Source: Candidatus Abyssobacteria bacterium SURF_5 (GTDB lineage: Bacteria; Abyssobacteria; SURF-5). From it: a DNA stretch of 43,129 nt. The stretch covers positions 1 to 43,129 of the forward strand of contig QZKU01000113.1 of NCBI GenBank assembly GCA_003598085.1, written 5' to 3'. The notes beneath the pieces were generated by a model. That model was not told where the DNA came from. It saw nothing but the letters and a program-made list of their open reading frames with translations, and did not search any database. A program made the position numbers and the translations under genes. Shown here one piece after another: positions 142-33,260 of this stretch. Positions within the stretch are counted from its first letter, which is position 1; the number at the start of each line of letters is the position of its first letter.

Positions 142-166
142 AAATTCGATTGCGGAGATGCAGCAT

Positions 167-240
167 GAGCCCCCTGGGGGCTCCCGGCGGCTCAAACCGG
201 ATTGAACACCCCGACATAATAATTCAACCTTTCAATCCGG
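167..240 (+). promoter_or_regulatory. Structured 5' leader of the formate dehydrogenase mRNA
   Basis: Two perfect hairpins lie between the predicted transcription start and the ribosome binding site. The first pairs GAGCCCC (167-173) with GGGGCTC (177-183) around a 3-nt loop. The second pairs CCGGATTGAA (197-206) with TTCAATCCGG (231-240) around a 24-nt loop. Such a leader could be an attenuator, a protein site or a metal/cofactor-sensing RNA; no known riboswitch class was recognised by eye. Confidence 0.45.
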
Positions 241-284
241 GGATAACCAGATTGTCTGCCGTAAATCGAAGAGAGGGAGACTCT

Positions 285-3200
285 ATGTCGGTACCGCCCG
301 CGCAACAACAGGAAAAGATACGTGTGAAAGCAACAATCGATGGTCGCCCGGTCTATGCGCAGAGCGACCGGACGATCCTGCAGGTCTGTAAGGAAAACAA
401 TATTCGCATTCCTACTCTTTGCCATGACGAACAATTGAGCCCGATCGCGTCCTGTCAACTGTGCGTTGTCGAACTCGAAGGGCACGGCCTCCTGACTTCG
501 TGCAACACCCGCATCGCTGACGGCATGGTCATCGAAACCCGAAGCGAAAACGTGATCTCCGCCCGCAAGCGCAGCCTCGAGACGCTGCTCGCCGGCCATT
601 ACGGCGATTGCGTCGCCCCCTGCCAGAAAGCGTGCCCGGCGGGCATAGATATTCAAGGATACCTGGCCCTGATCGCGAGAGGAGCGTATGCGGAGGCGGT
701 CGAAGTCATTAAAGAGCGGCTTCCCCTGCCGGGAATCATCGGGCGCGTCTGCCCGCATCCCTGTGAATCCGCCTGCCGCAGAGCACTGGTGGACGACCCA
801 ATCCCCATTTGCGCCCTGAAGAGATTTGCAGCCGACCAGGAACTGGCCGGACCGAATAAATTCGTCCCCAAAATCAAACCCGCTGCCGGAAAGAAAGTGG
901 CCATTGTCGGCGCCGGCCCCGCAGGCTTGTCCGCTGCCTATTACCTGTGCCGCGAAGGGTACGGTGTGTCCCTGTTCGAGGCGCTTCCGAAGGCGGGCGG
1001 CATGCTGCGTTACGGGATTCCGGATTACCGCCTGCCGCAGGATACCCTCGATGGCGAAATCCAGGCCATCGTGGATATGGGAGCTGAAATAAGGACCAGT
1101 CAGGCGCTCGGCAAGGATTTCACGATAGACAGCCTGTTCAAGGACGGCTATGATGCCGTCTTCCTCGCCATCGGCGCTCATAAGAGTTCAACCATGCGCG
1201 TCGACGGCGAGAACCTCGAAGGAGTTTATCCCGGCACCAACTTCCTCCGCTCGGTCGTGCTGGGCGAAACCGTCAACATCGGCAAACGAGTCGCCGTCAT
1301 CGGCGGCGGAAATACCGCGATCGATGCCGCCCGCACATCGCTCCGGCTCGGAGCCGAAGAAGTTACCATCATCTACCGGCGCTCGCGACACGAAATGCCC
1401 GCAACCGATTGGGAGGTCGAAGAGGCCGAGGAAGAAGGAGTAAAACTGCATTTCCTGGCCGCGCCCACCAGGATCGTCGGCGACAACGGGAGAGTTAAGG
1501 CGATTGAATGCACAAAGATGGAGCTCGGCGAGCCGGATAAAAGCGGGCGCCGCAGCCCCCAGCCCCTGAAAGGCTCCGAATTCCTCCTCCCGGTCGACTC
1601 CGTCATCGCCGCAATCGGCCAGAAGCCGGAGTTGGCCCCCATCGACGGCACGAGCGAGATCGCAACCAAGTGGGGAAATATCGTCGCGAATCAGGATACG
1701 CTCGTCACCGATATGAAGGGAGTATTCGCCGGAGGCGATTGCGTCAGTGGCGCCGCTACAGCGGTCCAGGCCATCGCCGCAGGCCGAAGGGCCGCAATGG
1801 CTATCCTTCGCTACTTGAATGGCAAACCGCTGGCTCTCAATGAGATGCCCTTCGAAATCAGCCGGGGCGAATTGTTCGAAGTTAAAGAGCACGATTTCGG
1901 GAAGGAACTTGCCGCCAAAGAGAAACAGCGCCGCCAGAAAATGCCGGCGATTTCTCCAAAGGAACGGATTATCGATTTCCGGCAGGTCGAGCTTGGGTAC
2001 AGCGAAGACGCCGCAATGCGCGAGGCCGCCCGCTGTCTCGAGTGTGGCTGTAAAGCGCAAAATCATTGCGACCTCCGTGATCTCTCCACGGAGTATGGCG
2101 TCGCTTCCCTGAAATCGCCGCAGGATGCCCCGCTCCTGCCGCGCGATCTGGATCACCCCTTCATCGAACGAGACCCCAACAAATGCATCGCCTGCGGGCG
2201 CTGCGTCCGCATTTGCCAGGAGGTCCAAGGTATCGGCGCGCTGAGCCTCAACTACCGCATCACGTCGACCGGCGGAACCGGTCCGCTGCTCGAAACCACA
2301 TGCGTTTCGTGCGGCCTCTGCGTGGCGAGCTGCCCCGTGGGCGCGCTCGAGCCGAAGAAATACCTGAATCCGGCGTACGAAGTCAAAACCGTTTGCCCCT
2401 ATTGCGGAGTCGGCTGCGGCATCTATCTCGGCGTTCGCGGAGGAACCGTCGTCAGCGCAAGAGGAGACGCCGGAAACGCCGTCAACGCGGGCAATCTCTG
2501 CGTGAAGGGCCGGTTCGGACACGACTTCATCCACCATCCCGACCGGCTGAGAAAACCACTCATCAAGAAGAAGGGGAGTTTCGTCGAGGCATCGTGGGAT
2601 GAAGCGCTCGATCTCATCGCCGAAAAATTCTCGCAATACACCGGCGATAGATTTGCAGCCCTCTCGTCGGCCCGATGTACCAACGAAGACAACTATCTCT
2701 TCCAAAAATTTGCGAGGGGGGTGATGGGCACAAACAACGTCGACCATTGTGCCCGCCTCTGACACTCCCCCACTGTGGCCGGTCTGGCCACGGCATTCGG
2801 CAGCGGCGCCATGACCAATTCCATCGGCGAAATCGAACGCGCGGCCTGCATCTTCTCGATCGGCTCCAATACCACCGCCAGCCATCCTGTCATCGGATTG
2901 CGCGTGAAGAAGGCCGTGAGGAACGGCGCCAAACTGATCGTCGCCAACCCGAGAAAGATAGACCTCGTCCGCTTCGCCCATATCTGGCTGCGCCAGCGGC
3001 CCGGCACCGATGTGCCTCTCTTGATGGGCATGATGCGCGTGATAATCGAAGAGAGCCTGTTCGATTCCAGCTTCGTGGAAAACAGATGCGAGGACTTCGA
3101 GGCATTCAAACAATCAGCGCTGGCGTATGACCTCGACGATGTCGAGAAAATTACCGGCGTGCCGAAAGACAAAATCGCCGAGGCCGCCCGCATGTATGCG

Positions 3201-4391
3201 ACCAACGGACCGGCATCGATCCTCTATGCCATGGGCATCACCCAGCACACGCACGGAACCGATAACGTGCTGGCCGTCGCCAATATCTCGATGCTCACCG
3301 GCAACATCGGCAAGGAATCGTCCGGCGTCAATCCGCTGCGCGGGCAGAACAACGTGCAGGGAGCTTGCGATATGGGCGCGCTGCCCAACGTGTTCCCCGG
3401 ATACCAGCAGGTCGCAGACGAGGCATTCCGCGACAAATTCTCAAAAGCGTGGCGAAGCAAGCTCAGCCCAAAGCCGGGATTGACCGTAGTTGAGATGATG
3501 AATGCGGCCGCGCACGAAAAGATTCGGGCGATGTACATCATGGGCGAGAACCCGATGCTCTCCGATCCCGACCTCAACCACGTCCGCGAGGCGCTCAAAG
3601 CTCTCGATTTTCTCGTCGTGCAGGATATCTTCCTGACCGAGACGGCGCAGCTTGCCGACGTGGTCCTGCCGGCCGTAACGTTTGCGGAAAAGGACGGCAC
3701 GTTCACAAATACGGAGCGACGCGTCCAAAGAGTACGGCAGGCGATCCGGCCTGTCGGAAACGCCAAGCCCGACTGGCAGATCATCGCCGAGATCGCCACC
3801 CGTATGGGACGCAAGGACTTCTCGTACGATTCCGCCGAGGAAATCTTCAAAGAACTCGCAAGCCTGACGCCGCAATATGCCGGCATCACCTACGACCGCA
3901 TCGACCGGAACGGTCTCCAATGGCCGTGCCCGACAAAGGAGCATCCCGGCACCATCTTCCTCCATACCGGCCAGTTCAGTCGCGGCAAGGGCAAATTCAC
4001 TCCGCTCCAGTACCGGCCGCCCGCGGAACTCCCCGACGCGGAGTACCCGCTCGTCCTCACCACCGAGCGCAGCCTGTTCCATTACCATACCGGCACGATG
4101 ACGCGCCGCGTCAGCGGCCTCAACGTCATGCGGAAAGAAGAACTCGTCGAGATCAACGCGCGCGACGCTCAAAGCCTCGGCATCGCCGACGGCGAAATGG
4201 TCAGGGTGAAGTCGCGGCGAGGCGAGGTGACCGCGCGCGCGAAAGTCACCGCCGACTCCGCGCCCGGCGAGGTCTCGATGACGTTCCACTTCTCCGAAAG
4301 CCCGACAAACGCGCTCACTAATCCAGCGCTCGACCCGGTCGCCAAGATCCCGGAATACAAGGTCTGCGCCGTCCGCGTCGAGAAGCTGTAA
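285..4391 (+). CDS. fdhA: Selenocysteine formate dehydrogenase alpha subunit fused to NuoG-like and GltD-like electron-entry modules
   Basis: Catalyses formate oxidation or CO2 reduction at a Mo/W-bis-MGD site. Read with TGA 2760-2762 as selenocysteine, it is 1368 aa with Sec826 in the context DHCARL-U-HSPTVAG, the classic Fdh active-site motif. Domains in order: a 2Fe-2S domain (Cys46, 57, 60, 73); a GltD/NfnB-like flavoprotein of about residues 100-520 with dinucleotide motifs VAIVGAGPAG (205) and VAVIGGGNTA (337); a Cys-rich segment CLECGC; two 4Fe-4S motifs (634-644, 673-684); the molybdopterin Fe4S4 motif (Cys704, 707, 711, 739); then the MopB body and a C-terminal molydopterin-dinucleotide-binding domain. 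ATG 285 is chosen because GAGAGGGAGA precedes it; upstream frame extension would run through the leader hairpins. The fusion suggests soluble NAD(P)H- or ferredoxin-linked electron exchange (inference). Conventional gene calling would split it at the TGA. Confidence 0.95.
2760..2793 (+). promoter_or_regulatory. Bacterial SECIS element at the Sec codon
   Basis: The in-frame TGA (2760-2762) is followed by a hairpin pairing GTGGCC (2775-2780) with GGCCAC (2786-2791), extended by two more pairs (one a T-G wobble), around the loop GGTCT (2781-2785). The loop GGUCU and its start 18 nt after the UGA are the same as in the E. coli fdhF SECIS as I recall it. SelB binding to this loop would direct Sec insertion. 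The reading frame stays open on both sides with uninterrupted Fdh homology. Confidence 0.93.
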
Positions 4392-4615: not shown

Positions 4616-4825
4616 ATGAAAGTCAGCGCCAGAAATCTGTTGAAGGGAAAGGTATCCAGAGTTACAATGGGAGCCGTAAACGCGGAGATTGAAATCGAAC
4701 TGGGCGACGGCCAGAAAGTGGTATCAATCATCACAATCAATTCCGCAAAAAAACTCGGCCTGGAGGTGGGAAAAGAAGCATATGCGATGATTAAAGCCTC
4801 CAGTGTCATGGTGGCGGTCGATTAA
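4616..4825 (+). CDS. Molbindin-type molybdate/tungstate-binding protein (single TOBE/Mop domain)
   Basis: A 69-aa protein matching the length and pattern of free-standing Mop/TOBE proteins: it opens MKVSARNLLKGKVSRV, continues with a GAVNAEIEIEL strand and ends KASSVMVAVD. Molbindins form hexameric rings that store molybdate or tungstate oxyanions in the cytoplasm. The ATG is set by a very good Shine-Dalgarno sequence (GGAGGTGA, about 5 nt upstream). It lies 225 bp after the formate dehydrogenase gene, which needs Mo or W, so metal supply to that enzyme is the likely role (inference). Confidence 0.9.
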   Translation: MKVSARNLLKGKVSRVTMGAVNAEIEIELGDGQKVVSIITINSAKKLGLEVGKEAYAMIKASSVMVAVD

Positions 4826-4903
4826 TACGATGCCCACGGTTTATACCCCGGGGGGATACGATGTTCTTTCTTCTTGAACTTTTTCACTGCTGTCCAGGAT
4901 AAC

Positions 4904-4950
4904 TGCAACATGGCCTTTTTGATTCTCAAAAACCCATGTGTTATAAGGCC
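4904..4950. repeat. Left arm of a 47-bp inverted repeat bracketing the A-B-A-B-B cluster
   Basis: Read as the reverse complement, this segment matches 13801-13846 at about 41 of 47 positions with a single-base gap. The core GATTCTCAAAAACCCAT is identical. The two copies face each other 8.9 kb apart and enclose the five-gene propeller/ankyrin cluster. Confidence 0.75.
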
Positions 4951-4992
4951 GATCAGAGTGACTAATTTGAGATTGTTTTTATAAGAGCTTTT

Positions 4993-5202: not shown

Positions 5203-5231
5203 TTGACATCGGTTATCTGTAGTGATATTAT
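5203..5231 (+). promoter_or_regulatory. Sigma70 promoter of the propeller/ankyrin cluster
   Basis: TTGACA (5203-5208), a 17-bp spacer, and TATTAT (5226-5231) match the consensus at 11 of 12 positions with ideal spacing. The start site would be near 5238, about 108 nt before the ATG at 5346. It is the only clear promoter found before the five same-strand genes. Confidence 0.8.
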
Positions 5232-5345: not shown

Positions 5346-7643
5346 ATGAAAACTCCGAGCGCCGGAAAGATTTTCAGGAACCTGCTGCTTGGACTCGGCG
5401 CAGTGCTGGCCCTGCTGGTTATTTCCACCCTCATCTTCACGCACTTCTATTTCAAGCGAACCTTCTCGCATCAGATCAACGGCGTCGTCATTCGCTGCTC
5501 TGACGGTATCCTCCGGAAATCCGCCGCCGATTGGGAGCCGCTGCATCCGGGAGATAATATAGCGCCGGGCATGCGCATTCGGATGCCGGTGGGGCGCCGG
5601 TCTCTCCTGTCGTTCAGCGGCATCCGGCTCTTGACGGACGGGCCGGCTGAGATTTCTATCAGGAACATCCGCAGTTTTTCGATTCAGAGCGGCACTATCG
5701 CTGTCGCTGCGGGATCGGTAGCGGAGACGCCCGAAATATTCTGCGGCGCAGGATGCGTAAAGATGTCTGATTCCGTCATGAGACTTGCAGCCGAACCGCC
5801 AACCCTCGCTTGTGTAACCGGCAAAGCCATCCTCACGGCGAACGGAGCACAGTATATGCTCGAGCCGGGCTCGCAGGCCGATCTCTCCGGCCAGCAACCG
5901 TCGCTCACGTCTTCTCAACTAGATGACCCCTTTAAACGGTTGAAAGTGTCAACGCTCGACCGGATTCGAAACCGGTTTGAAGAGGTGCTGGCGAAATACG
6001 CGCGGGCGCAAGAGAAATTCCAGTCTGCGCGCGCTCAGCGCCCCAATATCTGCACCGGCGGTTTCTTCGCCGATGGATTGCAGTTCGCTTCATACCTGCG
6101 GCCGCGGCCATTTCTGCTGGCTCAGCGCGATGCGGCCGCCGTTGCCGATTACTACGACAACATCTTTGCGCCAGGCAACCGCTCGATTTCCATTGGAAAA
6201 CAAAAGGCCATCCCGCTCACTCCCCACTTCGGCTCGAGTTGGCCGATGTGGTCGCACGACGGCTCGATGGTCGCGTTCATCGAGGCCAGCGTCTACGCCT
6301 GGCAGGCGCGGGTGCGGGTAGCCCGGCTCGACGACCTCGATCATCCGTGGGATATCTCGCAGGACCACGACGATGTGCTTTCGTTCTTCCCCATCGCGTG
6401 GGCGCCTGATAACCGCCACGTGCTCTTCATGGTCCCGGACAGCGTGAATCCCGACCCGAACGCGAGCATCCTGTGGGAAGGTCCATACCACATCATGATC
6501 GCGCCCATCGATCCGGCTGAAGGGCCGCTCCGCGAGTTCGAAAGCCCGTTCAGCGACCTTCCCATTTCCCTTCCGCTGCCGATTGGAAAAACCATTTCAC
6601 CCGTTATAATAAATTTGCCGTGGGGCGACGCGCTGCTCTGCGCCAACTGGGGCAACCTGGCGTACATCCCGATTGAACCCGACGGCCAGGCCGTCGCGGG
6701 CGCGCCCGGATTGTTCCTCACGAACTTCAACCCGCGAAAAGATTTTATCGCCGGCGGCATCTGGTCGCCGTCGGGAAGCAAGATCCTGTTTGCGGCCGCT
6801 GAGGATTTACGGTTCGATAACGGCGACGTGTTTATCTTGAATGATGTCGAGGATATCCTTGACGGTCTCGCCCTGCCCCCGCGCACGCTCGATGACCCGC
6901 GCATCAAAAGAGTCGCGTCCTCAAAGAATTTTCAAATTCCCGGCAGCTTCTCGTATGACGAATCGCTCGTGTTCTTCCAGGAAGACGTGAATGGCGCCTG
7001 GACCGCCTGGTATCCTGCCCTTTTACTCAATTGTGATTTCGATCTTTTCTACGCCGACGCCCGGCCCGATCAGCCGAGCAAATTCACCCAAATCCATCTG
7101 CCCGGTAATCAGATGTTCCTGCGGCTGTCGCCCGAGGGCAACCGCGTCGCCTACTCGTACGCCAACCACCCCGACTATGAGCTTCGTGTGGTCTCCTTCG
7201 ATATCGAGGCCGATATGGATACGGATCTCGGCGGCGTCCTCATCGACAACAGCGGCACGACCCTCATCGTTCCGCCGGGCGCCCTCGAAGAAAACTTCAA
7301 GGTCAAGATCAGCACTCCGTTCACCATCGAAGAAGAGGCCGAGGTGATGCCGGGCGAAACTCCTCTGTTCGCGATGAGGATGCTCGATGCGCAGGGACTG
7401 GAAAAACCCAAGTTCATCGAGCCGATGACTCTCACCATCAGGTACACCGACGACGAGGTTGCCGGTCTGGATGAAGGCATGCTTGAGATTTACTACTACG
7501 ATGAAAGCGATCCGGCGCATCCCGCATGGGTGCCCCTCGGCGGAACGGTCGATCCCGAGCATAACGAGATCACCATCGACATTCAACATTTCTCATCGTT
7601 CTCAGTCGGCTTGAAAAATAACTTACACGCTGTCAGGGAGTGA
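5346..7643 (+). CDS. Membrane-anchored FecR-like / beta-propeller / ZU5-like protein (A1)
   Basis: A 765-aa protein of unknown function. An N-terminal signal anchor (about residues 12-35) precedes a FecR-like domain (about 45-130; pattern VIRCSDG, W..L.PGD...G.RIRMP, LLSFSG). A charged helix (about 200-230) leads to a TolB/PD40-type propeller with blades PMWSHDGSMVAF, IAWAPDNRHVLFM, GIWSPSGSKILFA, FSYDESLVFF and LRLSPEGNRVAYS. The last 150 residues (GGVLIDNSG, VPPGALEENFKVKI, ending HFSSFSVG) resemble a ZU5-like beta sandwich. The ATG follows GGAGGGG. Most of the protein is predicted to be extracytoplasmic. The paralogue at 8925 has the same architecture. A role in envelope sensing or surface binding is inference. 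Confidence 0.88.
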   Translation: MKTPSAGKIFRNLLLGLGAVLALLVISTLIFTHFYFKRTFSHQINGVVIRCSDGILRKSAADWEPLHPGDNIAPGMRIRMPVGRRSLLSFSGIRLLTDGPAEISIRNIRSFSIQSGTIAVAAGSVAETPEIFCGAGCVKMSDSVMRLAAEPPTLACVTGKAILTANGAQYMLEPGSQADLSGQQPSLTSSQLDDPFKRLKVSTLDRIRNRFEEVLAKYARAQEKFQSARAQRPNICTGGFFADGLQFASYLRPRPFLLAQRDAAAVADYYDNIFAPGNRSISIGKQKAIPLTPHFGSSWPMWSHDGSMVAFIEASVYAWQARVRVARLDDLDHPWDISQDHDDVLSFFPIAWAPDNRHVLFMVPDSVNPDPNASILWEGPYHIMIAPIDPAEGPLREFESPFSDLPISLPLPIGKTISPVIINLPWGDALLCANWGNLAYIPIEPDGQAVAGAPGLFLTNFNPRKDFIAGGIWSPSGSKILFAAAEDLRFDNGDVFILNDVEDILDGLALPPRTLDDPRIKRVASSKNFQIPGSFSYDESLVFFQEDVNGAWTAWYPALLLNCDFDLFYADARPDQPSKFTQIHLPGNQMFLRLSPEGNRVAYSYANHPDYELRVVSFDIEADMDTDLGGVLIDNSGTTLIVPPGALEENFKVKISTPFTIEEEAEVMPGETPLFAMRMLDAQGLEKPKFIEPMTLTIRYTDDEVAGLDEGMLEIYYYDESDPAHPAWVPLGGTVDPEHNEITIDIQHFSSFSVGLKNNLHAVRE

Positions 7644-7765
7644 CTCCATTTGGGGCCCGAGTTCATACACGAAGCTCCGCATTGTAGGTTCCGACAGGCG
7701 GGTTCCTGAAGACAAGATCAACGTCGTCGGACTTGTTTTCTGTCTTCAGCTTGCGGGAGGAAAAA

Positions 7766-8857
7766 ATGGATGGAAATGAAACCCCTAAAACATCAATACT
7801 CGTTCTGGTCCTCTCGATAATCGGTCTTCTTCTTGGAGTACTTGCCTTCCTGCTTGCTGGAGCCGCTCTTGCTGCTTTCGTTGCCGCAAGCGTCCTTCCT
7901 TCTGAAGTCCTCGCTCCTCTCGCAGGAATACTTTCGACAATTAAATATTCTTCCTACGCCGCAGCGTCATTGACGCTCGGACTCGGGCTGGCGGCCGTCT
8001 TTCTCGCATGTATCAAGAAGACTCGCAAGGCTTTGCCTTTTGCCGTCGTCGTACTTGCCTTCATTTCAATTGCGCTGTCTCTTACAGGAAGATACTTGAA
8101 GATATTTCCTGTAAAGACAGCCAATGCGGGCATGGGTCAAATGTTTATGATGGACGATGACGCATCAATAACACGAGCCGCACGGACGCCGTTGATGAAA
8201 GCGGCCAAGGCAGGCAAAACGGAGGAAGTCGCCCGCTTATTGCAGGAAGGGGCAAACCCGCTCGAAAATGCTTCTAACGGCTGGACCGCGTGTAGCTTTG
8301 CAGTCCGTGACGGTCACATGGAAACAGTAAAAGTTTTTCTGCTTGAAGACGCAATCGCAAACGACAAATCCTGTCTTGGCGATTTGCTGAATATGGCAAC
8401 CGACTATGACCATACCGACATCTCTCGATTGCTGCTGAAATATGATGCCGACCTGGAAAAAAAATCTTCTTTCGGAGGGACTGCCTTGATGCATGCGGTC
8501 GATCATGACAATGAGGAAATCGTCGGATTACTCCTTGAGAAAGGGGCAGACGTCAACGCAGCCAATTTTACCGGTTGGACGGTATTGATGATGGCCGCTT
8601 ATGTAGGGAATACCGATACGATTGCCAAGTTGCTGAACCGAGGCGCCGACATAAACGCCCGGGGTTTCATCCGTGGCGCTACTGCCCTCATGGCGGCGTG
8701 TGAGGGCGGACAGATTGAGGCCGTTAAACTGCTCCTCTCGAGGGGAGCTGATATGAATATGAGGGATAACGAAGGTCGCACGGCCTTGGCCTGGGCTGGT
8801 TATTCCGGGAATATAGACATCGTCAGACTGCTTCAAAGCGAAGGAGCGGCACAATAA
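7766..8857 (+). CDS. Multi-pass membrane protein with ankyrin repeats (B1)
   Basis: A 363-aa protein. Three hydrophobic segments occupy roughly residues 11-45, 60-85 and 92-112. From about residue 145 there is an ankyrin domain of about seven repeats with typical hallmarks (TPLMKAAKAGKTEEVARLL, GADVNAANFTGWTVLMMAA, GADINARG, GADMNMRDNEGRTALAWA). The second to third repeats carry an unusual insertion, ANDKSCLGDLL, which is conserved in B2 and B3. Start ATG 7766 is chosen over an upstream in-frame ATG because GGGAGGA lies 5 nt before it. It lies 122 bp after A1. Ankyrin domains mediate protein-protein contacts; the partner is unknown. Confidence 0.88.
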   Translation: MDGNETPKTSILVLVLSIIGLLLGVLAFLLAGAALAAFVAASVLPSEVLAPLAGILSTIKYSSYAAASLTLGLGLAAVFLACIKKTRKALPFAVVVLAFISIALSLTGRYLKIFPVKTANAGMGQMFMMDDDASITRAARTPLMKAAKAGKTEEVARLLQEGANPLENASNGWTACSFAVRDGHMETVKVFLLEDAIANDKSCLGDLLNMATDYDHTDISRLLLKYDADLEKKSSFGGTALMHAVDHDNEEIVGLLLEKGADVNAANFTGWTVLMMAAYVGNTDTIAKLLNRGADINARGFIRGATALMAACEGGQIEAVKLLLSRGADMNMRDNEGRTALAWAGYSGNIDIVRLLQSEGAAQ

Positions 8858-8924
8858 TCCTGTTTTTTGAAGAACATCACCTTCTGTTAGCGCGAAAAAT
8901 GGCGCCATTAAAGGAGAGTCGGGC

Positions 8925-11270
8925 ATGAAAAGTGCACCCCTCAAATCCCTCACCAAGCTCTTCACTGTAATAGGATTAATGATTTTCCTGCTGCTTGTTT
9001 ATACCTTTCTGCTTGCACGTCCGTCATCAAACCCCGCTTCTTCCCCTGAGGTATCGAGCAGCACCAAAGAAGAACTCGTTCAGGGACATCATTCAATTCC
9101 CAGCCTTGGCGCTTTCGTTATCCGCTGTTCCGATGGAATCCAGCAAATGTGTTCCGGTGAATGGAAACAACTGAAACCGGGAGAAAAAATCCACGATGGC
9201 ATGCGACTCAGGATGCCTGGCTCTCATCGATCAATCCTTTCATTCAGGGGCATTCGCTTGATGACCGAGGGCCCCGCAGAGATAACTGTACACCATTCTG
9301 ATGCCTTATCCCTCAACAGTGGCAAACTCGCTCTTGCAACAGGCAAATTGGAAAATCCATTCTCTGTCACTTTTGGCCCGGCTCGCGCTGCCGTTGAATC
9401 AAATTCGATCCTGACTATGGAGGCTGACCCGCCGGCGGTCACCTGCATAAGTGGAGAGGCAGCCTTCTCGACAAGTGGAGAAGAACACAGGCTTGAGCCG
9501 CATAAGCAAGCGCTCGTCTTCGCCAAAGAAGTTCAGGTGGTATCCACGGTGGCACAGAACCCATTCGCCGGACTCAATGTGACAACGATGGACAGGATTC
9601 AGGACCGATTTCAAAAGATAGTGACCAAATACGCTGGAAAACATGTCAAGAGCATTGAGAAATCCCTCCTTCACCCGGCGCTTGCTCTTACCGGCAGCCG
9701 CTTCGATGGCGGAATTCGCTTTGTATCATATGCGCGGCCATCCCCGCCCACCCTGGCCAAGACAGATACAACCGCAGTCGCCGAATATTATGAAAGCCTC
9801 TTCTCTCCCAGCAACCGCTCGATTGCCATCGGAAAGGAAAAGATTGTCTCCGTCACCCCTTATAGCGCCGCGAGTTGGCCTATGTGGTCTCACGACGGCT
9901 CGATGATCGCCTTTATTGAAACCAGCATCTATTCTTGGCAGGCAAGAGTCAGAGTCGCCCGACTCGACGACCTGGACCATCCATGGGATATTTCGCAGGA
10001 TTACGAGACGGTTCTTCCTTACTTTCCGATTGCATGGGCGCCCGACAACCGGCACGTCCTGTTCATGACGGCCGACCACATGGAATTCGGGAAAGATGGT
10101 TATGAATGGTGGTGGGCAGCCCCTCTTCATCTGAAGATCGCTCCAATCGATCCAAACGAGGGACCGATTCGCGAATTTGAAAGCCCGCTGCCGGAATCGC
10201 GTGTCTCTTTCGATTTCAGCACCGGCAGGACCATGGCGCCTATCATCATGAACCTGCCGTGGGGCGACGCGCTCCTCTGCGCCAATGCGGGCAATCTCGC
10301 ATACATCCCCATCGAACCCGACGGACAGGCCGTCGCCGGCTCCCCCGGGTTCTTTCTCACCTCTTTCCATCCATATAAGTGTTACATCGCAGGAGGCATC
10401 TGGGCGCCGTCGGGAAACAAAATCCTGTTCGCAGCCGGCGAGAATATGATGCTCGATAGCGGTAATGTTTATATCCTTTATGACATTGAAGATATTCTCG
10501 ACGGCGTTGCCCCGCCTCCAATTTCGCTGGACGATCCACGAATTAAACGGGTAGCCCCTTCCCCAAACACCCAACTCCCAGCCAGTTTCTCCTATGACGA
10601 ATCGCTCGTCTTTTATCAAGAGGACGTAAACAGGGCTTGGAAATTCGCGACACCGAAAGACATAACGCCTTGTGATTTTGATCTCGTTTATGCCGATGCG
10701 AGGCCAAATCAACCGAGCAAGTTCAGCCAGATTCATTTAGCGGGAAACCAGGCTTTCCTGCGGCTGTCACCCGAAGGGAATCGTCTGGTGTATGCATACT
10801 ACAATCATCCGACATATGAGCTGCGTGTGGTCACCTTCGATATCGAGGCCGATATGGATATGGACCTTGGCGGCGTCCTCATCGACAACAGCGGCACGAA
10901 CCTCATCGTTCCGCCGGGCGCCCTCGAGGAAAACTTCAAGGTCAAGATCAGCACTCCATTCACCATCGAAGAAGAGACCGAGGTGATGCCGGGCGAAACT
11001 CCTTTGTTCGCGATGCGAATGCTCGATGCGCAGGGACTTGAAAAGCCCAAGTTCATTGAACCGATGACTCTCACCATCAGGTACACCGACGATGAGGTCG
11101 CCGGCCTTGATGAAGGCATGCTCGAGATTTACTGCTACGATGAAAGCGATCCGGCGCATCCAGTCTGGACGCCGCTCGGCGGAACGGTCGATTCCGAGCA
11201 TAACGAGATCACCATCGACATACAGCATTTCTCATCGTTCTCGGTCGGCCCGAAGAATAAGAGAAACTAA
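8925..11270 (+). CDS. Membrane-anchored FecR-like / beta-propeller / ZU5-like protein (A2)
   Basis: A 781-aa paralogue of A1 with the same order: signal anchor (about residues 15-33), FecR-like domain (VIRCSDGIQ, SILSFRGIRLMTEGPAEI), helical linker (LDRIQDRF-type), propeller blades (PMWSHDGSMIAF, IAWAPDNRHVLFM, GIWAPSGNKILFA, LRLSPEGNRLVYA) and a ZU5-like C-terminus. The N-terminal half has clearly diverged from A1, while the last 414 coding bases differ at only about 30 positions. The ATG follows AAAGGAGAG by 7 nt. It sits 67 bp after B1, so the A-B order repeats. The N-terminal half looks more AT-rich than A1. Confidence 0.88.
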   Translation: MKSAPLKSLTKLFTVIGLMIFLLLVYTFLLARPSSNPASSPEVSSSTKEELVQGHHSIPSLGAFVIRCSDGIQQMCSGEWKQLKPGEKIHDGMRLRMPGSHRSILSFRGIRLMTEGPAEITVHHSDALSLNSGKLALATGKLENPFSVTFGPARAAVESNSILTMEADPPAVTCISGEAAFSTSGEEHRLEPHKQALVFAKEVQVVSTVAQNPFAGLNVTTMDRIQDRFQKIVTKYAGKHVKSIEKSLLHPALALTGSRFDGGIRFVSYARPSPPTLAKTDTTAVAEYYESLFSPSNRSIAIGKEKIVSVTPYSAASWPMWSHDGSMIAFIETSIYSWQARVRVARLDDLDHPWDISQDYETVLPYFPIAWAPDNRHVLFMTADHMEFGKDGYEWWWAAPLHLKIAPIDPNEGPIREFESPLPESRVSFDFSTGRTMAPIIMNLPWGDALLCANAGNLAYIPIEPDGQAVAGSPGFFLTSFHPYKCYIAGGIWAPSGNKILFAAGENMMLDSGNVYILYDIEDILDGVAPPPISLDDPRIKRVAPSPNTQLPASFSYDESLVFYQEDVNRAWKFATPKDITPCDFDLVYADARPNQPSKFSQIHLAGNQAFLRLSPEGNRLVYAYYNHPTYELRVVTFDIEADMDMDLGGVLIDNSGTNLIVPPGALEENFKVKISTPFTIEEETEVMPGETPLFAMRMLDAQGLEKPKFIEPMTLTIRYTDDEVAGLDEGMLEIYCYDESDPAHPVWTPLGGTVDSEHNEITIDIQHFSSFSVGPKNKRN

Positions 11271-11483
11271 TGACTGAGTTGAGATGACTCACAGTCCGGT
11301 ATTCGCGGGAGAGAAAAAGCCTCCCAAAGCTTCGCGTGACTCTCTCTTTTGACTTTCTTGATCGAAAACCAACCCTTAGATTTTTGCAGTCCGTCGATGT
11401 CCGGAGGCGCAACTCATTGGCCCACAGGGCGCGATGAATCGGAGTGATGAATTGCGCTTTTCCCGCAGATCAAGGAGAAAAAA

Positions 11484-12575
11484 ATGGAAGAAAAAGCATC
11501 AAGACCCATAAAATCAAAACTCGTTCTCGCTCTCTCGATCATAGGGCTTATCGTCGTCATACTCGCCCTACCGATAACCGTTCTCCTGATTTCCGGACCC
11601 ATCCTTCTCGGCGGTCGTTTGCCATCGGAATTGATTGGTCCTCTGACGCTGGTACTTTCGACCGTCGGTCGCATTTCGCTCTACATGCACGCACTGGCTC
11701 TCTCCTTTGGCGTGACGGCCATTATCGTCGCTTTTTTCAAAAAAGCAACCAAAACAACTCCATTCATTGCGGTGGCTCTTATTCTCATTTCCTTTGGTAT
11801 AACCTTCGCAGGAAAAGCCTCTAGCGCCACCTCTCTTACTGCGTCCGGCGCAGATCTGCAGCAGTTGCAGGCCATGCTGCGCGGCGTATCAAATGTCACG
11901 ACTGCGACCACCCCACTCATGAAAGCGGCCGAAGCGGGCAGAACAGAGGAAGTGAAGGCGCTGCTGAGAGATGGAGCCGATCCCTATGTAAAATCGGGCT
12001 TTCTTACTGCAGGGGGATTGGCCGTAAAGAACGGACACATAGAAACGGTCGAGGCATTTCTTGAAGAAGATGCGGTTGCAAACGATAAAGGATACCTGGG
12101 AGAGCTTCTACTCGTTGCAGCCACCGAAAACCAACTTGATATTGCGGGCATGCTCCTGGATAACGGCGCCGAGACGGGTAAGACGGATGTAATGGGCATG
12201 CCTCCCCTCATGCATGCCGTCGATATGCAGAATTGGCAAATGGCCGATCTCCTCCTCGAAAGCGGCGCCGATGTCAATTTCAAAAATCGAATGGGTTGGA
12301 ATGTGCTCACAATGGCGGTCCTCGATGAGAATGCACAAATGGTCGAAAAATTTCTGGACTACGGCGCCGACATTAATGTGAGAAGCGCGGAGGGCTGGAC
12401 CCCCTTAATGGCGGCCTGCAACGTCGGGAATACCCAAATCGCGGAACTGCTCATTTCGCGGGGCGCCGACATGAACATCCGCGACAAGAACGGCCACACC
12501 GCAATGGGATGGGCGGCCCATAAGGGTCACATAGATGTTGTGCGGGCGCTTCAAAGTGCGGGAGCAAGGGAGTGA
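11484..12575 (+). CDS. Multi-pass membrane protein with ankyrin repeats (B2)
   Basis: A 363-aa paralogue of B1 with identical length. Hydrophobic segments lie near residues 13-45, 60-85 and 92-112, including the shared pattern LP(S)E(L/V)...L..LST. Ankyrin repeats begin near residue 143 (TPLMKAAEAGRTEEVKALL) and end with GADMNIRDKNGHTAMGWAA. The insertion motif is ANDKGYLGELL. The ATG is preceded by AAGGAG at 7 nt. It lies 213 bp after A2, probably on the same long transcript. As with B1, the topology suggests a membrane-tethered cytoplasmic ankyrin domain (inference). Confidence 0.88.
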   Translation: MEEKASRPIKSKLVLALSIIGLIVVILALPITVLLISGPILLGGRLPSELIGPLTLVLSTVGRISLYMHALALSFGVTAIIVAFFKKATKTTPFIAVALILISFGITFAGKASSATSLTASGADLQQLQAMLRGVSNVTTATTPLMKAAEAGRTEEVKALLRDGADPYVKSGFLTAGGLAVKNGHIETVEAFLEEDAVANDKGYLGELLLVAATENQLDIAGMLLDNGAETGKTDVMGMPPLMHAVDMQNWQMADLLLESGADVNFKNRMGWNVLTMAVLDENAQMVEKFLDYGADINVRSAEGWTPLMAACNVGNTQIAELLISRGADMNIRDKNGHTAMGWAAHKGHIDVVRALQSAGARE

Positions 12576-12657
12576 GCGCCGGTTAATGTTTTGGCCGCCT
12601 CGGTGGATGTCTTGCAGTCACCGTGACAGGGGGAAGCCAACGGACGAGACAATAAAG

Positions 12658-13761
12658 ATGAAAAAAAGATCGGCCCTGGCAACTGTTTTCACGTTTCTTT
12701 CGCTGATCCTCGGGGTTGCCGGGGTTCTCTGTTTGACCCTTCTGCTGATAGGTTTCTTCATCGTCACCGACTATCGCTCCTCGCCGTGGTTCTGGGCTAT
12801 TGCACGTATCACAGTTTCTTTTCCTTTCAAACTGGTGCTCCAGGTGCTCCTGGGTTCAAGTCTCATCCTCGGTTTACTGGCGGTTGTGACCGCATGGTTA
12901 AAGCATGCGCGGAAGGGTCTTCCCGTTACAGCGCTTGCTCTTGCCGGAATAGAGATCGGCGCCATCCTCATTGCGTCCAGCCGATTTGCGCAGCACAGTC
13001 CGCTGTACTCGGCCTACCTCAATTTCATTTCATCTGCACCGCAGCAGAATCGCGCGTACACGAAAACCGTTACTGCTTACAGAACGACCACGCCTCTTCA
13101 TCAAGCCGCTGAAGCGGGCAAAGTCGAAGAAGTCCGGAGATTACTCCGGGAGGGCGCCGACCCGTTTGAAAAATGCGCCCCCGGTTGGACCGCCGGCGGG
13201 TTGGCCATCAAAAATGGGCATTACGAAACGGTGCAAGCGCTTATCGAGGAGAGTCCAAAAGTTGCGAATGACAAGGACTATCTCGGGGGGCTGTTACATG
13301 TTTGCGTCGGACAAAACAACCTCCAGATTGCTAAATTACTGATCGATAATGGCGCGAATTTGGATGTAACGACTCCGGACGGATGGACGCCCCTCATGAA
13401 CGCGGCCCAAAAAGGGCATGAGGAAATCGCTGAACTGCTTATTGACAAGGGAGCCAACGTTGATCCGCTGCATCCAGAAGGTTTAGGCCCGCTCATGGTG
13501 GCCACATATTGGGGGCGGATGAACCTGGTCACAAAGCTTCTGGACAATGGCGCAAATATCAACGTGCGGACTTTTGAGGGCGCCACTCCGCTCATGTCAG
13601 CATGTAGTGTGGGCAACACCGAAATGGTCGACCTGCTCATTTCGCGGGGTGCCGATTTGAATATCCGCGATAAAAACGGGCATACGGCGATGGCCTGGGC
13701 CGCCCATGGAGGCTATATTGACCTCGTGCGGTCGCTCCAGCAGATAGGAGCAAAGGAATAA
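12658..13761 (+). CDS. Multi-pass membrane protein with ankyrin repeats (B3)
   Basis: A 367-aa third member of the B family: N-terminal hydrophobic segments (about residues 7-35, 55-78 and 85-105), then seven or so ankyrin repeats (TPLHQAAEAGKVEEVRRLL, GANLDVTTPDGWTPLMNAA, GANINVRTFEGATPLMSAC, GADLNIRDKNGHTAMAWAA) with the insertion ANDKDYLGGLL. Its repeats are closer to the ankyrin consensus than those of B1. ATG 12658 is chosen because the hydrophobic segment follows directly, matching B1 and B2; the ribosome binding site is weak, so translation may be coupled to B2, which ends 82 bp upstream. Confidence 0.85.
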   Translation: MKKRSALATVFTFLSLILGVAGVLCLTLLLIGFFIVTDYRSSPWFWAIARITVSFPFKLVLQVLLGSSLILGLLAVVTAWLKHARKGLPVTALALAGIEIGAILIASSRFAQHSPLYSAYLNFISSAPQQNRAYTKTVTAYRTTTPLHQAAEAGKVEEVRRLLREGADPFEKCAPGWTAGGLAIKNGHYETVQALIEESPKVANDKDYLGGLLHVCVGQNNLQIAKLLIDNGANLDVTTPDGWTPLMNAAQKGHEEIAELLIDKGANVDPLHPEGLGPLMVATYWGRMNLVTKLLDNGANINVRTFEGATPLMSACSVGNTEMVDLLISRGADLNIRDKNGHTAMAWAAHGGYIDLVRSLQQIGAKE

Positions 13762-13800
13762 CGTCGAGCAATTAACGGCCTCAAATTAGTCACTCCAATC

Positions 13801-13846
13801 GGCCTCGTAAAAGATGGGTTTTTGAGAATCAAAAGGCCATATTGCA
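13801..13846. repeat. Right arm of the inverted repeat bracketing the A-B-A-B-B cluster
   Basis: This is the inverted partner of 4904-4950. It contains ATGGGTTTTTGAGAATC as the reverse complement of the left core, with one base missing in the A/T run. It begins 40 bp after the B3 stop codon. Confidence 0.75.
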
Positions 13847-13880
13847 AGACCCTTTGGTTGCAGCTTTGCCGCGCTGTGCT

Positions 13881-29817: not shown

Positions 29818-30807
29818 TCAGGTTTTCCGCCGCGAGAAAGAAACATCTCGCGCGGCGGGAATCTGTTCGATGGATTCGGCGCAGGCGACGGCGTCCAAAA
29901 TGGCACTCGCCACGGCTTCGGCGGCCGCACACCCGATGGCGGAGACCGGCGCCGAGAGGCGGCTGTCGGCTCGGCTGAGAGCGAAGACGACATCACCGTC
30001 AAAGGACGTATGTGCCGGTGAGACCGTTTTCGCAATTCCGTTGGACGCCATTTGTGCAAATTTGCAGGTTTCTTCCTTCGTAAGAAAAGCGTTGGTGGCT
30101 GCAAGCCCGATGACTGTATTCGGGAACCCGAGAACCGTTCCCGCCGGATCCTGTTTCAATACACATGCAGTATCAGCGAACCCGCTGTCATCCGGCAGGC
30201 GCGCGCCGGCAACAATTACGCCAGTGGAAGGATCAACGATATCTCCAAAAGCGTTTACCGCAAAGAGAGCCCCCACTTTTATACCGCCTGCTACATCAAC
30301 GCAGGCCGTTCCAATCCCGCTTTTCATTGCGCGGCTCATCCCATAGATCTTGCCGACAGTCGCGCCGGTTCCCGCGCCCACGTTGCCCCGGCCGAAGCTG
30401 CCACTGCCAGCCTCGCTGCACGCCTGGTATGCCATTTCACCCGTGGGCCGTGCCGTGGGGTTCCCAATCGCGAGGTCCAGCAGGATTGCGGCCGGAATGA
30501 TCGGGACTTTGGCAATTCTGATGTCGAAACCGATATCGTGCTCTTCCAGAAAACGCATCACGCCCGCTGCGGCATCAAGTCCATATGCGCTCCCGCCCGC
30601 CAGTAAAATGGCATGCACGTGCTGAATGAGATGAGTCGGGCGAAGCAACTCGATTTCACGCGTGCCTGTCGCGGAACCGCGGACGTCGACTCCGCCCGTC
30701 ATGGGAGCGTCACAAAGGATAACCGTGCAACCGGTGACTCCGCTTCTATCGGTTGCATGCCCAACGCGCAGACCGCCGATGTCGGTAAGATATCCTGAAG
30801 GATCCAT
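29818..30807 (-). CDS. P1/S58 family peptidase (DmpA-like N-terminal-nucleophile aminopeptidase)
   Basis: A 329-aa member of the DmpA/P1 family, self-cleaving Ntn hydrolases that release N-terminal residues from small peptides or amides. Family segments seen: IGGLRVGHATD at the N-terminus, LLAGGSAYGLDAAAGVMRFLEE, GNVGAGTGATVGK, and the predicted cleavage/nucleophile region IGLAATNAFLTKEE followed by SPAHTSFDGDVVFAL. The nucleophile is probably the Thr of ATN, as in Thr-type members. ATG 30807 is chosen because AAAGGA precedes it; ATG 30834 has no ribosome binding site. It lies alone between the pilT operon and a REP-like palindrome. Confidence 0.88.
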   Translation of the reverse strand: MDPSGYLTDIGGLRVGHATDRSGVTGCTVILCDAPMTGGVDVRGSATGTREIELLRPTHLIQHVHAILLAGGSAYGLDAAAGVMRFLEEHDIGFDIRIAKVPIIPAAILLDLAIGNPTARPTGEMAYQACSEAGSGSFGRGNVGAGTGATVGKIYGMSRAMKSGIGTACVDVAGGIKVGALFAVNAFGDIVDPSTGVIVAGARLPDDSGFADTACVLKQDPAGTVLGFPNTVIGLAATNAFLTKEETCKFAQMASNGIAKTVSPAHTSFDGDVVFALSRADSRLSAPVSAIGCAAAEAVASAILDAVACAESIEQIPAARDVSFSRRKT

Positions 30808-30860
30808 GAAATGCCGGCGTCCTTTGAGGAACATTCAAATCTTAAAATAACGCTAAAAAT

Positions 30861-30935
30861 ATGGGGACAGAGACCATATTTAAATCGTTAATAGATTTTA
30901 ATGCTAATTAATAAAAATGTGGTCTCTGTCCCCAT
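30861..30935. repeat. REP-like palindrome of the 'GGGGACAGAGACC' type
   Basis: ATGGGGACAGAGACCATATTT (30861-30881) is mirrored by a near-perfect reverse complement at 30915-30935, with a 33-nt AT-rich loop. Sequences of this kind flank REP-associated tyrosine transposases in many environmental bacteria (recalled). No transposase gene is present, so this is a solo element. A further CCTGTCCCC half-motif occurs near 31003. Confidence 0.65.
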
Positions 30936-31123
30936 CTTACAAAGCGAAGGGGGACTTGCTCCATTTACGGAATTCATGCCTTTTTGAATTCGTAGAATGG
31001 CGCCTGTCCCCGAAGCAAGAACCAGCCCTCAATCGTCGGGCAACCTCTCTGTTCCCGGGGCAAAATGGAACCAACTCACTCGTCGGCCACTCGCTGTTCC
31101 CGATCGCCGAAATCGCTGTAAGT

Positions 31124-33010
31124 CTAGTTCAGTAACTCAAATATCTTGACCATTCCTTCTTTGTCCGGCATCACCTGAAAATGGATCCCGCCGGTTTCTT
31201 TCGAGATTTTTTTCAGGATCGGCGGACATTGCTCGCGACCGATAAAGATCGAGTGGATGGCCACGCCGATCTTTTTTGCCATTTTCAGTTCCTGCTTTAC
31301 TTCTTTATCGCCGCTGGTGGGCATGCCGTCCGTGAGAAAGATCACGTGCTGGCGCCCGCCCCGCATTGCTCCGAATTCCTTCAGAGCGTCGTCGAGCGCA
31401 TTCTGATAATCGGTGAATCCGGAGCATTGGGTTTCCATGCTCTTGCGCATCAGCGCCTCATAATTGTGCGTGAAGAAGCGGCCGTCGTCGATGTACTTGT
31501 ACGACTGATGATTGAACTCGATATAGCCGACGGTCATCTTGCTGCGCTTGGCCATTTCGACCAGGCCGATGACCACCATCGAGACCCACAGCGACGACCT
31601 GCCGGTCATCGATTGGCTGATGTCGCGGATAACGGCGACTCGCCCGCCTCGCTCCTTGCGAGTGCGCCGAAAGACATGCGGAGTCGTCGGATTGGAGTCG
31701 TCGATCCAGACCGAGCCTTCGCCCGGATCGGAATCGAAGAAATCGTCAAGCGACCGCATCGAGCGCAGTTGCTTCGGAACTCCCCCCTGAACTTCGCGCC
31801 GCGACGCGATGCTGCGTTGCACCTCTCCTTCGATGACCTTCAGGATCGCATCAAGATCGTCGATCTTTTCCTTGTTCAGGGGCGCATGCTCGTCCTGGCG
31901 CCGGCTCTCTTTGGTGATCTTGTCGTAATGAACTTCTTTTCGATAGGGGGAAACCTGTTCGGTCTCCTCTTCGGTGGGAGAGGCCTCGGCCTCGATGCTC
32001 TCCTCGGACTGCTCGGTCGGAACAGTCTCCTCAGGCTCCTGCTCCGACAACTGCTCCTGCTCTATTTCATCATTTTTTTTTTGCTCCGCCTCTTTTATGA
32101 GGTCCTCGATCTTCTCGTGAACCTCCGGCGGAACCCGAAATGTCGTCAGGTACTTCAGGACGATCATGTCTTGAGGCTCAACCACCCAGCGCCGCTCCAG
32201 AACCGCCTTGGCTTTGAGCATTTTGACCGCTTTCACGAGGAACGTGCGGTCGGTGATGAGAGAATTGTTGTCGTTGAGGTCGAACCTGGTCATCAGGTTG
32301 GTGATAAAGGTGAGCAACATCTCCTTGACGGCATTCGGAAGCGTTACCTTCAGGAGAATGTCCCGATTCGCTTTCAGACTACCTAATGTATCCGGCTCGA
32401 TTTCCTGATCGTCAAAATCGAACTGAGAATAGTAATCGATCACTTTCCTCGCCATCTCCCAGCGGCTCTTCTGGATCAGGCCAACGACACGAAGCTGCAG
32501 CGTGAAGCGATCCAGATTCGCCAGGTCCAGCGGCTCGTTATAATAATCGTCCTTCGCCGGATTCCCGGTCGCGATCGTCGTGATCAGCGGAATCCTTTCC
32601 TTCCCGAATTTGCGCTCATTCAGCACCCGCAAAAGCACGTTCAACGCTTCTCCGGGCGCGCGAGAGATATCGTCCAATACGCAGATATCAGCCGTCAAAA
32701 TCCGGCCCTTCACAATGTCCTGCCGGATCATCTCGCTCTGGTCCTCGCGTTCCCGATGAATGACATAATCTCCGATCAACTCCGTAAGGCGGGTGTCGCG
32801 ATGTAGTTGGTAAAAGAAAAATTCCAGATTCGCAGCCTTGGCCGCGATTTCGGCGAGCATCGTCTTCGCGGTCCCGGGAGGACCCTCGACATAGACGTGT
32901 TCGCGCGCTATCAAACCCAGCAAAATTGCTTCTTTTATGTCATCATGGCCGATGACAAACTGATCCATGCACTCCCGTATATGATTGAGGGTGGTATGTA
33001 ACTTTTCCAT
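31124..33010 (-). CDS. Fused MoxR-type AAA ATPase and von Willebrand A domain protein
   Basis: A 628-aa protein joining two modules that are usually separate genes. The N-terminal MoxR AAA domain has Walker A GPPGTAKT (43-50), Walker B ICVLDDI (109-115) and the sensor segment TIATGNP. An acidic Glu-rich linker follows (about 304-355). The C-terminal vWA domain has a complete MIDAS site: DISQS (463-467), Thr533 and Asp561 in LTDGMPT. MoxR/vWA pairs act as chaperones that mature or insert metal cofactors into enzyme complexes; the client here is unknown. ATG 33010 is chosen because a promoter lies between it and the far upstream in-frame start, and GGAGAG precedes it. Confidence 0.88.
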   Translation of the reverse strand: MEKLHTTLNHIRECMDQFVIGHDDIKEAILLGLIAREHVYVEGPPGTAKTMLAEIAAKAANLEFFFYQLHRDTRLTELIGDYVIHREREDQSEMIRQDIVKGRILTADICVLDDISRAPGEALNVLLRVLNERKFGKERIPLITTIATGNPAKDDYYNEPLDLANLDRFTLQLRVVGLIQKSRWEMARKVIDYYSQFDFDDQEIEPDTLGSLKANRDILLKVTLPNAVKEMLLTFITNLMTRFDLNDNNSLITDRTFLVKAVKMLKAKAVLERRWVVEPQDMIVLKYLTTFRVPPEVHEKIEDLIKEAEQKKNDEIEQEQLSEQEPEETVPTEQSEESIEAEASPTEEETEQVSPYRKEVHYDKITKESRRQDEHAPLNKEKIDDLDAILKVIEGEVQRSIASRREVQGGVPKQLRSMRSLDDFFDSDPGEGSVWIDDSNPTTPHVFRRTRKERGGRVAVIRDISQSMTGRSSLWVSMVVIGLVEMAKRSKMTVGYIEFNHQSYKYIDDGRFFTHNYEALMRKSMETQCSGFTDYQNALDDALKEFGAMRGGRQHVIFLTDGMPTSGDKEVKQELKMAKKIGVAIHSIFIGREQCPPILKKISKETGGIHFQVMPDKEGMVKIFELLN

Positions 33011-33067
33011 AAATCTGTCGTTCTCTCCAGTTATAAGGGATGTAATTTTCAGAGTGCTCCTGTCCAA

Positions 33068-33097
33068 ATTGTAACACGCATCTCGAACAAATTGCAA
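33068..33097 (-). promoter_or_regulatory. Sigma70 promoter of the MoxR-vWA gene
   Basis: On the minus strand TTGCAA (33097-33092), an 18-bp spacer and TACAAT (33073-33068). The start site would be near 33061, leaving a leader of about 50 nt before ATG 33010. Confidence 0.6.
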
Positions 33098-33260
33098 GAA
33101 ATTACAACCGGGAAAACTCGCAGTTGTTCCGTAACAAGAAACGACTATCCGCCGCGGCGTCGAACAGATCGCTCTCCGCGCCAAAGATAAAACCTTGGCG
33201 GCTTTTCGCTGGACTTGCAAAGTTTTCTTGAGATATACTACTGCTGGAACAGGAGCGGAA

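What the first reader, a model, noticed from the sequence alone, without database searches (positions are those of the whole stretch)
5346..13761. A-B-A-B-B cluster of FecR/propeller/ZU5-like envelope proteins and membrane-ankyrin proteins
Seen: two paralogues of a membrane-anchored FecR-like/PD40-propeller/ZU5-like protein alternate with three paralogues of a membrane protein carrying ankyrin repeats, all on one strand behind one strong promoter. I know of no named system with this pairing. Inference: the propeller proteins sit outside the inner membrane and the ankyrin domains inside, so each A-B pair could relay or scaffold an envelope signal. Local duplication has amplified the pair, and B once more.
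Basis: partly seen in the sequence, partly recalled or inferred. Interest (0 to 1): 0.75.

Follow-up and report, generated by a model that had tools for sequence, protein, structure and literature searches.

The report
Stripped anti-sigma sensors beside ankyrin membrane proteins
In an uncultured deep-subsurface bacterium, the outside-facing sensor part of a gene-regulating membrane protein has lost its inner regulatory part, been duplicated, and now sits among three membrane-anchored ankyrin proteins, which points to a scaffold on the outer face of the inner membrane rather than a signal relay.

Summary
The A-B-A-B-B layout is real. A1 (5346-7643) and A2 (8925-11270) are 64% identical. B1 (7766-8857), B2 (11484-12575) and B3 (12658-13761) each have three TM helices plus ankyrin repeats. 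PD40 is supported. ZU5 and FecR are sub-threshold in A1/A2 but supported by homologues.

The main new fact comes from the two sister genomes. Three of four A homologues there start with a zinc-finger anti-sigma domain (zf-HC2) and lie directly behind an ECF sigma-factor gene. A is therefore the sensor half of an ECF/anti-sigma pair. In the window, and in one sister copy, both the sigma gene and the anti-sigma domain are gone, leaving a cytoplasmic tail of about 12 residues.

One sister A, still with its sigma factor, also has an exported ankyrin gene next door.

Best reading: a periplasm-facing, membrane-anchored protein-binding module derived from an anti-sigma sensor. Transmembrane relay is unlikely if the topology is right. 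What it binds is unknown. B's membrane domain was found only in this genome, full-length A only in this three-genome phylum. New variant of a known kind, moderate interest.

The parts
5203..5231 (+). sigma-70 type promoter TTGACA-N17-TATTAT with extended -10 TG, before A1
   Evidence: 11 of 12 matches; the scan as a whole finds no more sites than shuffles. A similar TTGACA-N17-TATTCT with TG precedes the sister genome's short A (L031 2624-2596).
5346..7643 (+). A1, 765 aa: one N-terminal TM helix (13-31), FecR-like domain (~47-195), TolB/S9-like beta-propeller with PD40 (~280-618), ZU5-like domain (~619-757) ending in HFS (748-750)
7766..8857 (+). B1, 363 aa: three TM helices and a C-terminal ankyrin domain; start chosen by RBS GGAGG and paralogue alignment (the 7733 TTG start is less likely)
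8925..11270 (+). A2, 781 aa: paralogue of A1 with a longer linker after the TM helix
11484..12575 (+). B2, 363 aa: three TM helices and an ankyrin domain
12658..13761 (+). B3, 367 aa: three TM helices and an ankyrin domain (model of 368 aa: TM helices 7-39, 58-82, 88-111; ankyrin repeats 147-368 mostly at pLDDT over 90)
7190..7590 (+). ZU5 tract of A1 homogenised with A2 (10830-11230): 88-97% nucleotide identity against about 53-68% elsewhere
   Evidence: 4-fold sites identical: 46 of 56 in ZU5, 42 of 107 in the propeller, 22 of 59 in FecR plus linker
4904..4971 (+). left arm of a 68-bp inverted repeat flanking the cluster; part of a dispersed repeat family of this genome
13780..13847 (-). right arm of the same inverted repeat (88% identical to the left arm)

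Best explanation
A is the periplasmic sensor half of an ECF sigma/anti-sigma pair that has lost its cytoplasmic zinc-finger anti-sigma domain and its sigma gene (supported by comparison with sister genomes). It was then duplicated in the window's lineage and set among three copies of a three-TM ankyrin protein B (shown). Both A's FecR-propeller-ZU5 part and B's ankyrin repeats most likely face the periplasm (inferred from charge distribution, TM count and exported ankyrin relatives). The cluster then makes an inner-membrane-anchored, periplasm-facing protein-binding module. A recognises a periplasmic or envelope ligand through the propeller and ZU5 domains that the ancestral sensor used, and the ankyrin domains of B bind A or the same client as scaffold or chaperone, as AnkB-type ankyrins do for catalases (function inferred). 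Because neither protein would have a sizeable cytoplasmic domain, the module would not relay a signal to transcription.
For: Sister A homologues L032, L033 and L034 begin with zf-HC2 (P0003 30.0 bits vs cut-off 22.2; P0001 22.1; P0002 16.9) and follow, within a few bases or overlapping, ECF sigma genes with Sigma70_r2/r4_2 hits. No trace of the sigma or zinc-finger part lies near A1, A2 or the short sister A. The own genome's best ECF matches are 23-29% identical, against 54-57% between the sisters' A-linked ECFs. The tree puts A1, A2 and the short sister A (G002:C30) in one clade at 100/100, with A1/A2 a later duplication (99/99). A more distant ECF partner (L069) shares zf-HC2-TM-FecR with long A, which favours the long form as ancestral. 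Topology: three helices in every B with a charged N-terminus and a KKxRK-type TM2-TM3 loop, ankyrin after TM3. Nine of 11 other ankyrin proteins read in the three genomes carry a signal peptide or lipobox by eye. In L032 a signal-peptide ankyrin gene follows A by about 75 bp on the same strand; the chance of that in any of three loci is roughly 0.013 by a crude count.
Against: The positive-inside margin is small for B1 (about equal counts) and only moderate for B2 and B3. A-ankyrin adjacency is seen in only one of three resolvable sister loci (L033 has a SurA/PpiC-like lipoprotein and L034 a beta-helix protein instead). The ankyrin neighbour in L032 shares only the repeat, not the B membrane domain. 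The downstream side of the short sister A is cut by a contig end. No evidence here shows A and B touching. The A model is weak overall (mean pLDDT 57.8) and ZU5 was not modelled.
Confidence: 0.5

Rival explanations
1. One reading: A's propeller outside and B's ankyrins inside, each pair relaying an envelope signal across the inner membrane to a cytoplasmic partner.
For: B1 has a weak fourth hydrophobic stretch (38-56), and four TMs would put the ankyrins inside. A's relatives look like true transmembrane sensors.
Against: The stretch is weak in B1 and absent in B2 and B3, and the model gives three TM helices. A fourth TM would put the KKxRK loop outside. Most ankyrin proteins of the three genomes are exported. 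A lost its signalling domain.
Confidence: 0.2
2. A and B are not partners. A1/A2 are relics of a lost anti-sigma system and the cluster grew by tandem duplication of neighbouring genes, perhaps helped by a dispersed repeat that flanks it.
For: Only one of three resolvable sister A loci has an ankyrin neighbour. B's membrane domain has no convincing relative in 386 genomes. A dispersed repeat stands inverted on both sides of the cluster.
Against: A1 and A2 stay open and alike (85% over residues 301-360), the ZU5 tracts are kept alike, probably by conversion, and the sister short A has kept a promoter of the same type. Duplicates preserved as alternating pairs, and an exported ankyrin next to an A in a sister genus, speak for linkage.
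Confidence: 0.25
3. A1/A2 still regulate an ECF sigma factor in trans, for instance as decoy receptors or by competing with a full-length anti-sigma protein.
For: Other ECF/zinc-finger pairs exist in the genome (L077, L078).
Against: The own genome has no ECF of the A-linked subgroup (best 29% identity) and no full-length A, so there is nothing to compete with that shares the sensor.
Confidence: 0.05

Closest known systems
Class I zinc-binding (zf-HC2) anti-sigma factors with periplasmic FecR-like sensors, paired with ECF sigma factors
   Same: TM helix followed by FecR-like and propeller domains; sister homologues carry zf-HC2 and sit behind ECF genes
   Different: The window copies lack zf-HC2 and the ECF gene; a PD40-propeller plus C-terminal ZU5 as sensor was not found in a named system in the literature searches made
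AnkB-type periplasmic ankyrin proteins (Pseudomonas aeruginosa AnkB, Leptospira KatE-linked ankyrin; PMC10294975 and its reference 85)
   Same: Bacterial ankyrin protein probably facing the periplasm, in an operon with its presumed client
   Different: Three TM helices rather than a signal peptide, three copies, and no catalase gene among the neighbours examined
TolB / S9-peptidase type beta-propellers
   Same: Foldseek matches of the A model to TolB and S9 peptidase propellers (E about 1e-7); PD40 repeat
   Different: About 11% identity, membrane-anchored, FecR in front and ZU5 behind; no peptidase domain found
ZU5-superfamily domains of bacterial surface proteins and toxins (PMC3482391)
   Same: ZU5-like by profile; HFS near the C-terminal end invariant in seven homologues
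   Different: Here at the extreme C-terminus of a membrane-anchored sensor; autoproteolysis untested

Membership tests
ECF-associated zinc-finger anti-sigma factor | Cytoplasmic zf-HC2 (HxxxCxxC) anti-sigma domain | tested here: not met
   Present in P0001-P0003, absent from A1, A2 and P0004
ECF-associated zinc-finger anti-sigma factor | Cognate ECF sigma gene next to it | tested here: not met
   None near A1 or A2; no close ECF relative in the own genome
ECF-associated zinc-finger anti-sigma factor | Single TM helix followed by a periplasmic sensor homologous to that of the zf-HC2-bearing relatives | tested here: met
   53-54% identity to the long A proteins over about 740 aa
FecR domain (PF04773) | Pfam score above the cut-off | tested here: inconclusive
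   No hit in A1 or A2; 24.6 bits vs 24 in the aligned part of P0003
PD40 / TolB-like beta-propeller | Profile hit and propeller fold | tested here: met
   23.7 and 21.1 bits vs 20.9; Foldseek to TolB and S9 propellers, model confidence moderate
ZU5 domain (PF00791) | Pfam score above the cut-off | tested here: not met
   14-20 bits vs 21 in all homologues; the ZO-1 ZU5 domain is the best PDB match of the profile, E 0.004
ZU5 autopeptidase | Cleavage at the HFS motif | not testable with these tools
   Motif invariant in seven homologues
AnkB-type periplasmic ankyrin chaperone | Ankyrin domain in the periplasm | tested here: inconclusive
   TM count and charges favour it; exported relatives
AnkB-type periplasmic ankyrin chaperone | Catalase partner in the operon | tested here: not met
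   No catalase among the A-B genes or the neighbours scanned between 150 and 25173
Anti-phage defence system | PADLOC models beyond the shared ankyrin repeat | tested here: not met
   A1 and A2 have no hit; B1 and B3 hit only through ankyrin stretches

The most novel reading that the evidence does not exclude
A transcription-regulating transmembrane sensor was cut free of its sigma factor and rebuilt, together with periplasm-facing ankyrin proteins, into a new envelope protein-binding complex whose ZU5 domain may cut itself at a conserved HFS site.
Probability: 0.2. Interest if true: 0.65.

Novelty: new variant of a known kind. Interest (0 to 1): 0.42.

Why it matters
It gives a traceable case, with intact and stripped versions in sister genera, of a signalling receptor losing its regulatory half while its sensor is kept, duplicated and partly homogenised. 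It also adds an ECF/anti-sigma subfamily with a FecR-propeller-ZU5 sensor in a little-studied subsurface phylum (Candidatus Abyssubacteria), and corrects the likely topology of the ankyrin partner.

Tried and rejected
Remnants of the sigma or zinc-finger part near A1: none (the only window hit below E 0.1 is a 28-aa match at 18526, E 0.004, far from the cluster). B membrane domain elsewhere: only fragments with E above 1e-4 and of doubtful meaning in 386 genomes. A beyond the phylum: its zinc-finger end or its PD40-ZU5 end match separately, never the whole; a pattern scan of genome contigs found only the two sister genomes. Defence system: rejected, since the A proteins have no PADLOC hit and the B proteins hit only through ankyrins. 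Dot/Icm effector names in NCBIfam: far below the cut-offs and due to ankyrin repeats alone. Inverted repeat as the ends of a mobile element: weak, because it is a dispersed repeat with six further arm copies in the genome and no transposase-like ORF was noticed in the cluster. The A structure model is poor in ZU5.

Full report
WHAT IS THERE. The window is contig C113 of a 5.1 Mb, 145-contig genome assembly whose phylum has only three genomes in the collection. One sister record is titled MAG: Candidatus Abyssobacteria bacterium SURF_17 and the other carries a Poribacteria title; the lineage was described in PMC6121073. The five ORFs lie on one strand in the order A1-B1-A2-B2-B3. Four of the five have clear ribosome-binding sites at the starts 5346, 7766, 8925 and 11484; B3 is best started at 12658. 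A1 and A2 are 64% identical, the B proteins 39-45%.

DOMAINS. Pfam supports PD40 in A and ankyrins in B; ZU5 is just below its cut-off and FecR is not hit in A1 or A2. In the sister homologues FecR passes in one and is weaker in two others, and ZU5 recurs at the same place in all. A ZU5-region profile finds the ZO-1 ZU5 domain first among all PDB chains, E 0.004. The A model shows a confident beta-rich domain at about 47-195 where FecR lies, a moderate propeller, and an unmodelled ZU5. Foldseek returns TolB and S9-peptidase propellers. B is modelled as three TM helices followed by a low-confidence linker and a confident ankyrin stack.

ORIGIN OF A. In the sister genomes, L032, L033 and L034 each have an ECF sigma gene followed at once (a few bases apart or overlapping) by an A homologue whose first 40 or so residues form a zf-HC2 anti-sigma domain. 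The fourth sister copy (L031, G002:C30) is short like the window's A1 and has no sigma gene upstream. The tree without ZU5 groups the short copies A1, A2 and L031 at 100/100, with A1/A2 as a later duplicate pair at 99/99; its root is a midpoint. A related ECF in G001 (L069) is followed by a protein sharing zf-HC2, TM and FecR with long A but a different outer part. That makes the long form the likely ancestor and the short form a single loss of the regulatory half. The own genome has no ECF of the sisters' A-linked subgroup. Full-length A was found only in this phylum among 386 genomes, and a pattern scan of 84,980 species genomes for close relatives returned only the two sister genomes.

GENE CONVERSION. 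A1 and A2 differ at about 60% of four-fold degenerate sites in the FecR and propeller parts, but at only 18% in the ZU5 part (46 of 56 the same); nucleotide identity jumps from about 0.67 to 0.9 at about position 7190. A recent conversion tract explains this best. The ZU5 domain is also the most conserved part between species.

TOPOLOGY. Each B has a charged N-terminus, TM1, TM2, a KKTRK/KKATK/KHARKG loop, TM3, and then the ankyrins. With both positive segments inside, the ankyrins fall outside. The margin is clear for B2, moderate for B3 and slight for B1. Of 11 other ankyrin proteins read in the three genomes, nine have a signal peptide or lipobox by eye; one of the nine is encoded about 75 bp behind the L032 A gene. 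A's tail before its TM helix is about 12 residues. If this topology is right, nothing large enough to signal remains in the cytoplasm.

PAIRING. A-ankyrin adjacency occurs in the window and in one of three resolvable sister loci; the fourth is cut by a contig end. The neighbour in L032 does not have the B membrane domain, which appears only in this genome. Chance adjacency in any of three loci is about 1% by a crude count. The link is therefore suggestive, not established. Published periplasmic ankyrins such as AnkB work with a client encoded beside them (PMC10294975), which is the model followed here for function. That step is inference.

EXPRESSION. A promoter of the extended -10 type lies about 115 bp before A1. 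The scan as a whole is no richer than shuffled DNA, but a matching promoter stands before the short A of the sister genome. No convincing terminator interrupts the cluster. The 213-bp gap before B2 leaves room for a second promoter.

VERDICT. The interpretation should change from a transmembrane relay to a stripped anti-sigma sensor with probable periplasmic ankyrin partners. The origin is well supported (about 0.9), the topology moderately (about 0.7), and the joint function weakly (about 0.35).

Noticed in passing
150-4391 (+), TGA at 2760-2762: Two ORFs are one formate dehydrogenase-like gene interrupted by an in-frame TGA in NNVDHCARL*HSPTV, the usual selenocysteine position.
   Followed up: partly
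about 4617-4826 (+): A small ORF (MKVSARNLLKGKVSRVTMGAVNAEIEIEL...) resembles a molybdopterin-binding Mop/TOBE protein, next to the formate dehydrogenase (the family is from memory).
   Followed up: no
4904-4971 and 13780-13847: A 68-bp inverted repeat, 88% identical, brackets the A-B cluster; it belongs to a dispersed repeat with further copies in this genome.
   Followed up: partly
L037:2816-17887 and L038:2944-14309: Giant ORFs (over 5000 and 3700 aa) in the sister genomes hold several PD40-ZU5-like modules similar to A.
   Followed up: no
L016:6008-8494: A third PD40-ZU5 protein of the own genome, secreted, with the same HFS motif but no ankyrin neighbour.
   Followed up: partly
29818-33289 (-): A MoxR-type ATPase and a P1-type peptidase gene (by look; family not searched) have close relatives (82% and 72%) right beside the sister genome's ECF-A-ankyrin locus in L032; in the window they lie about 16 kb from the A-B cluster.
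   Followed up: no
L069:2581-5333: Another ECF/zinc-finger anti-sigma pair with a FecR-like part and an unrelated outer domain in the sister genome G001.
   Followed up: partly
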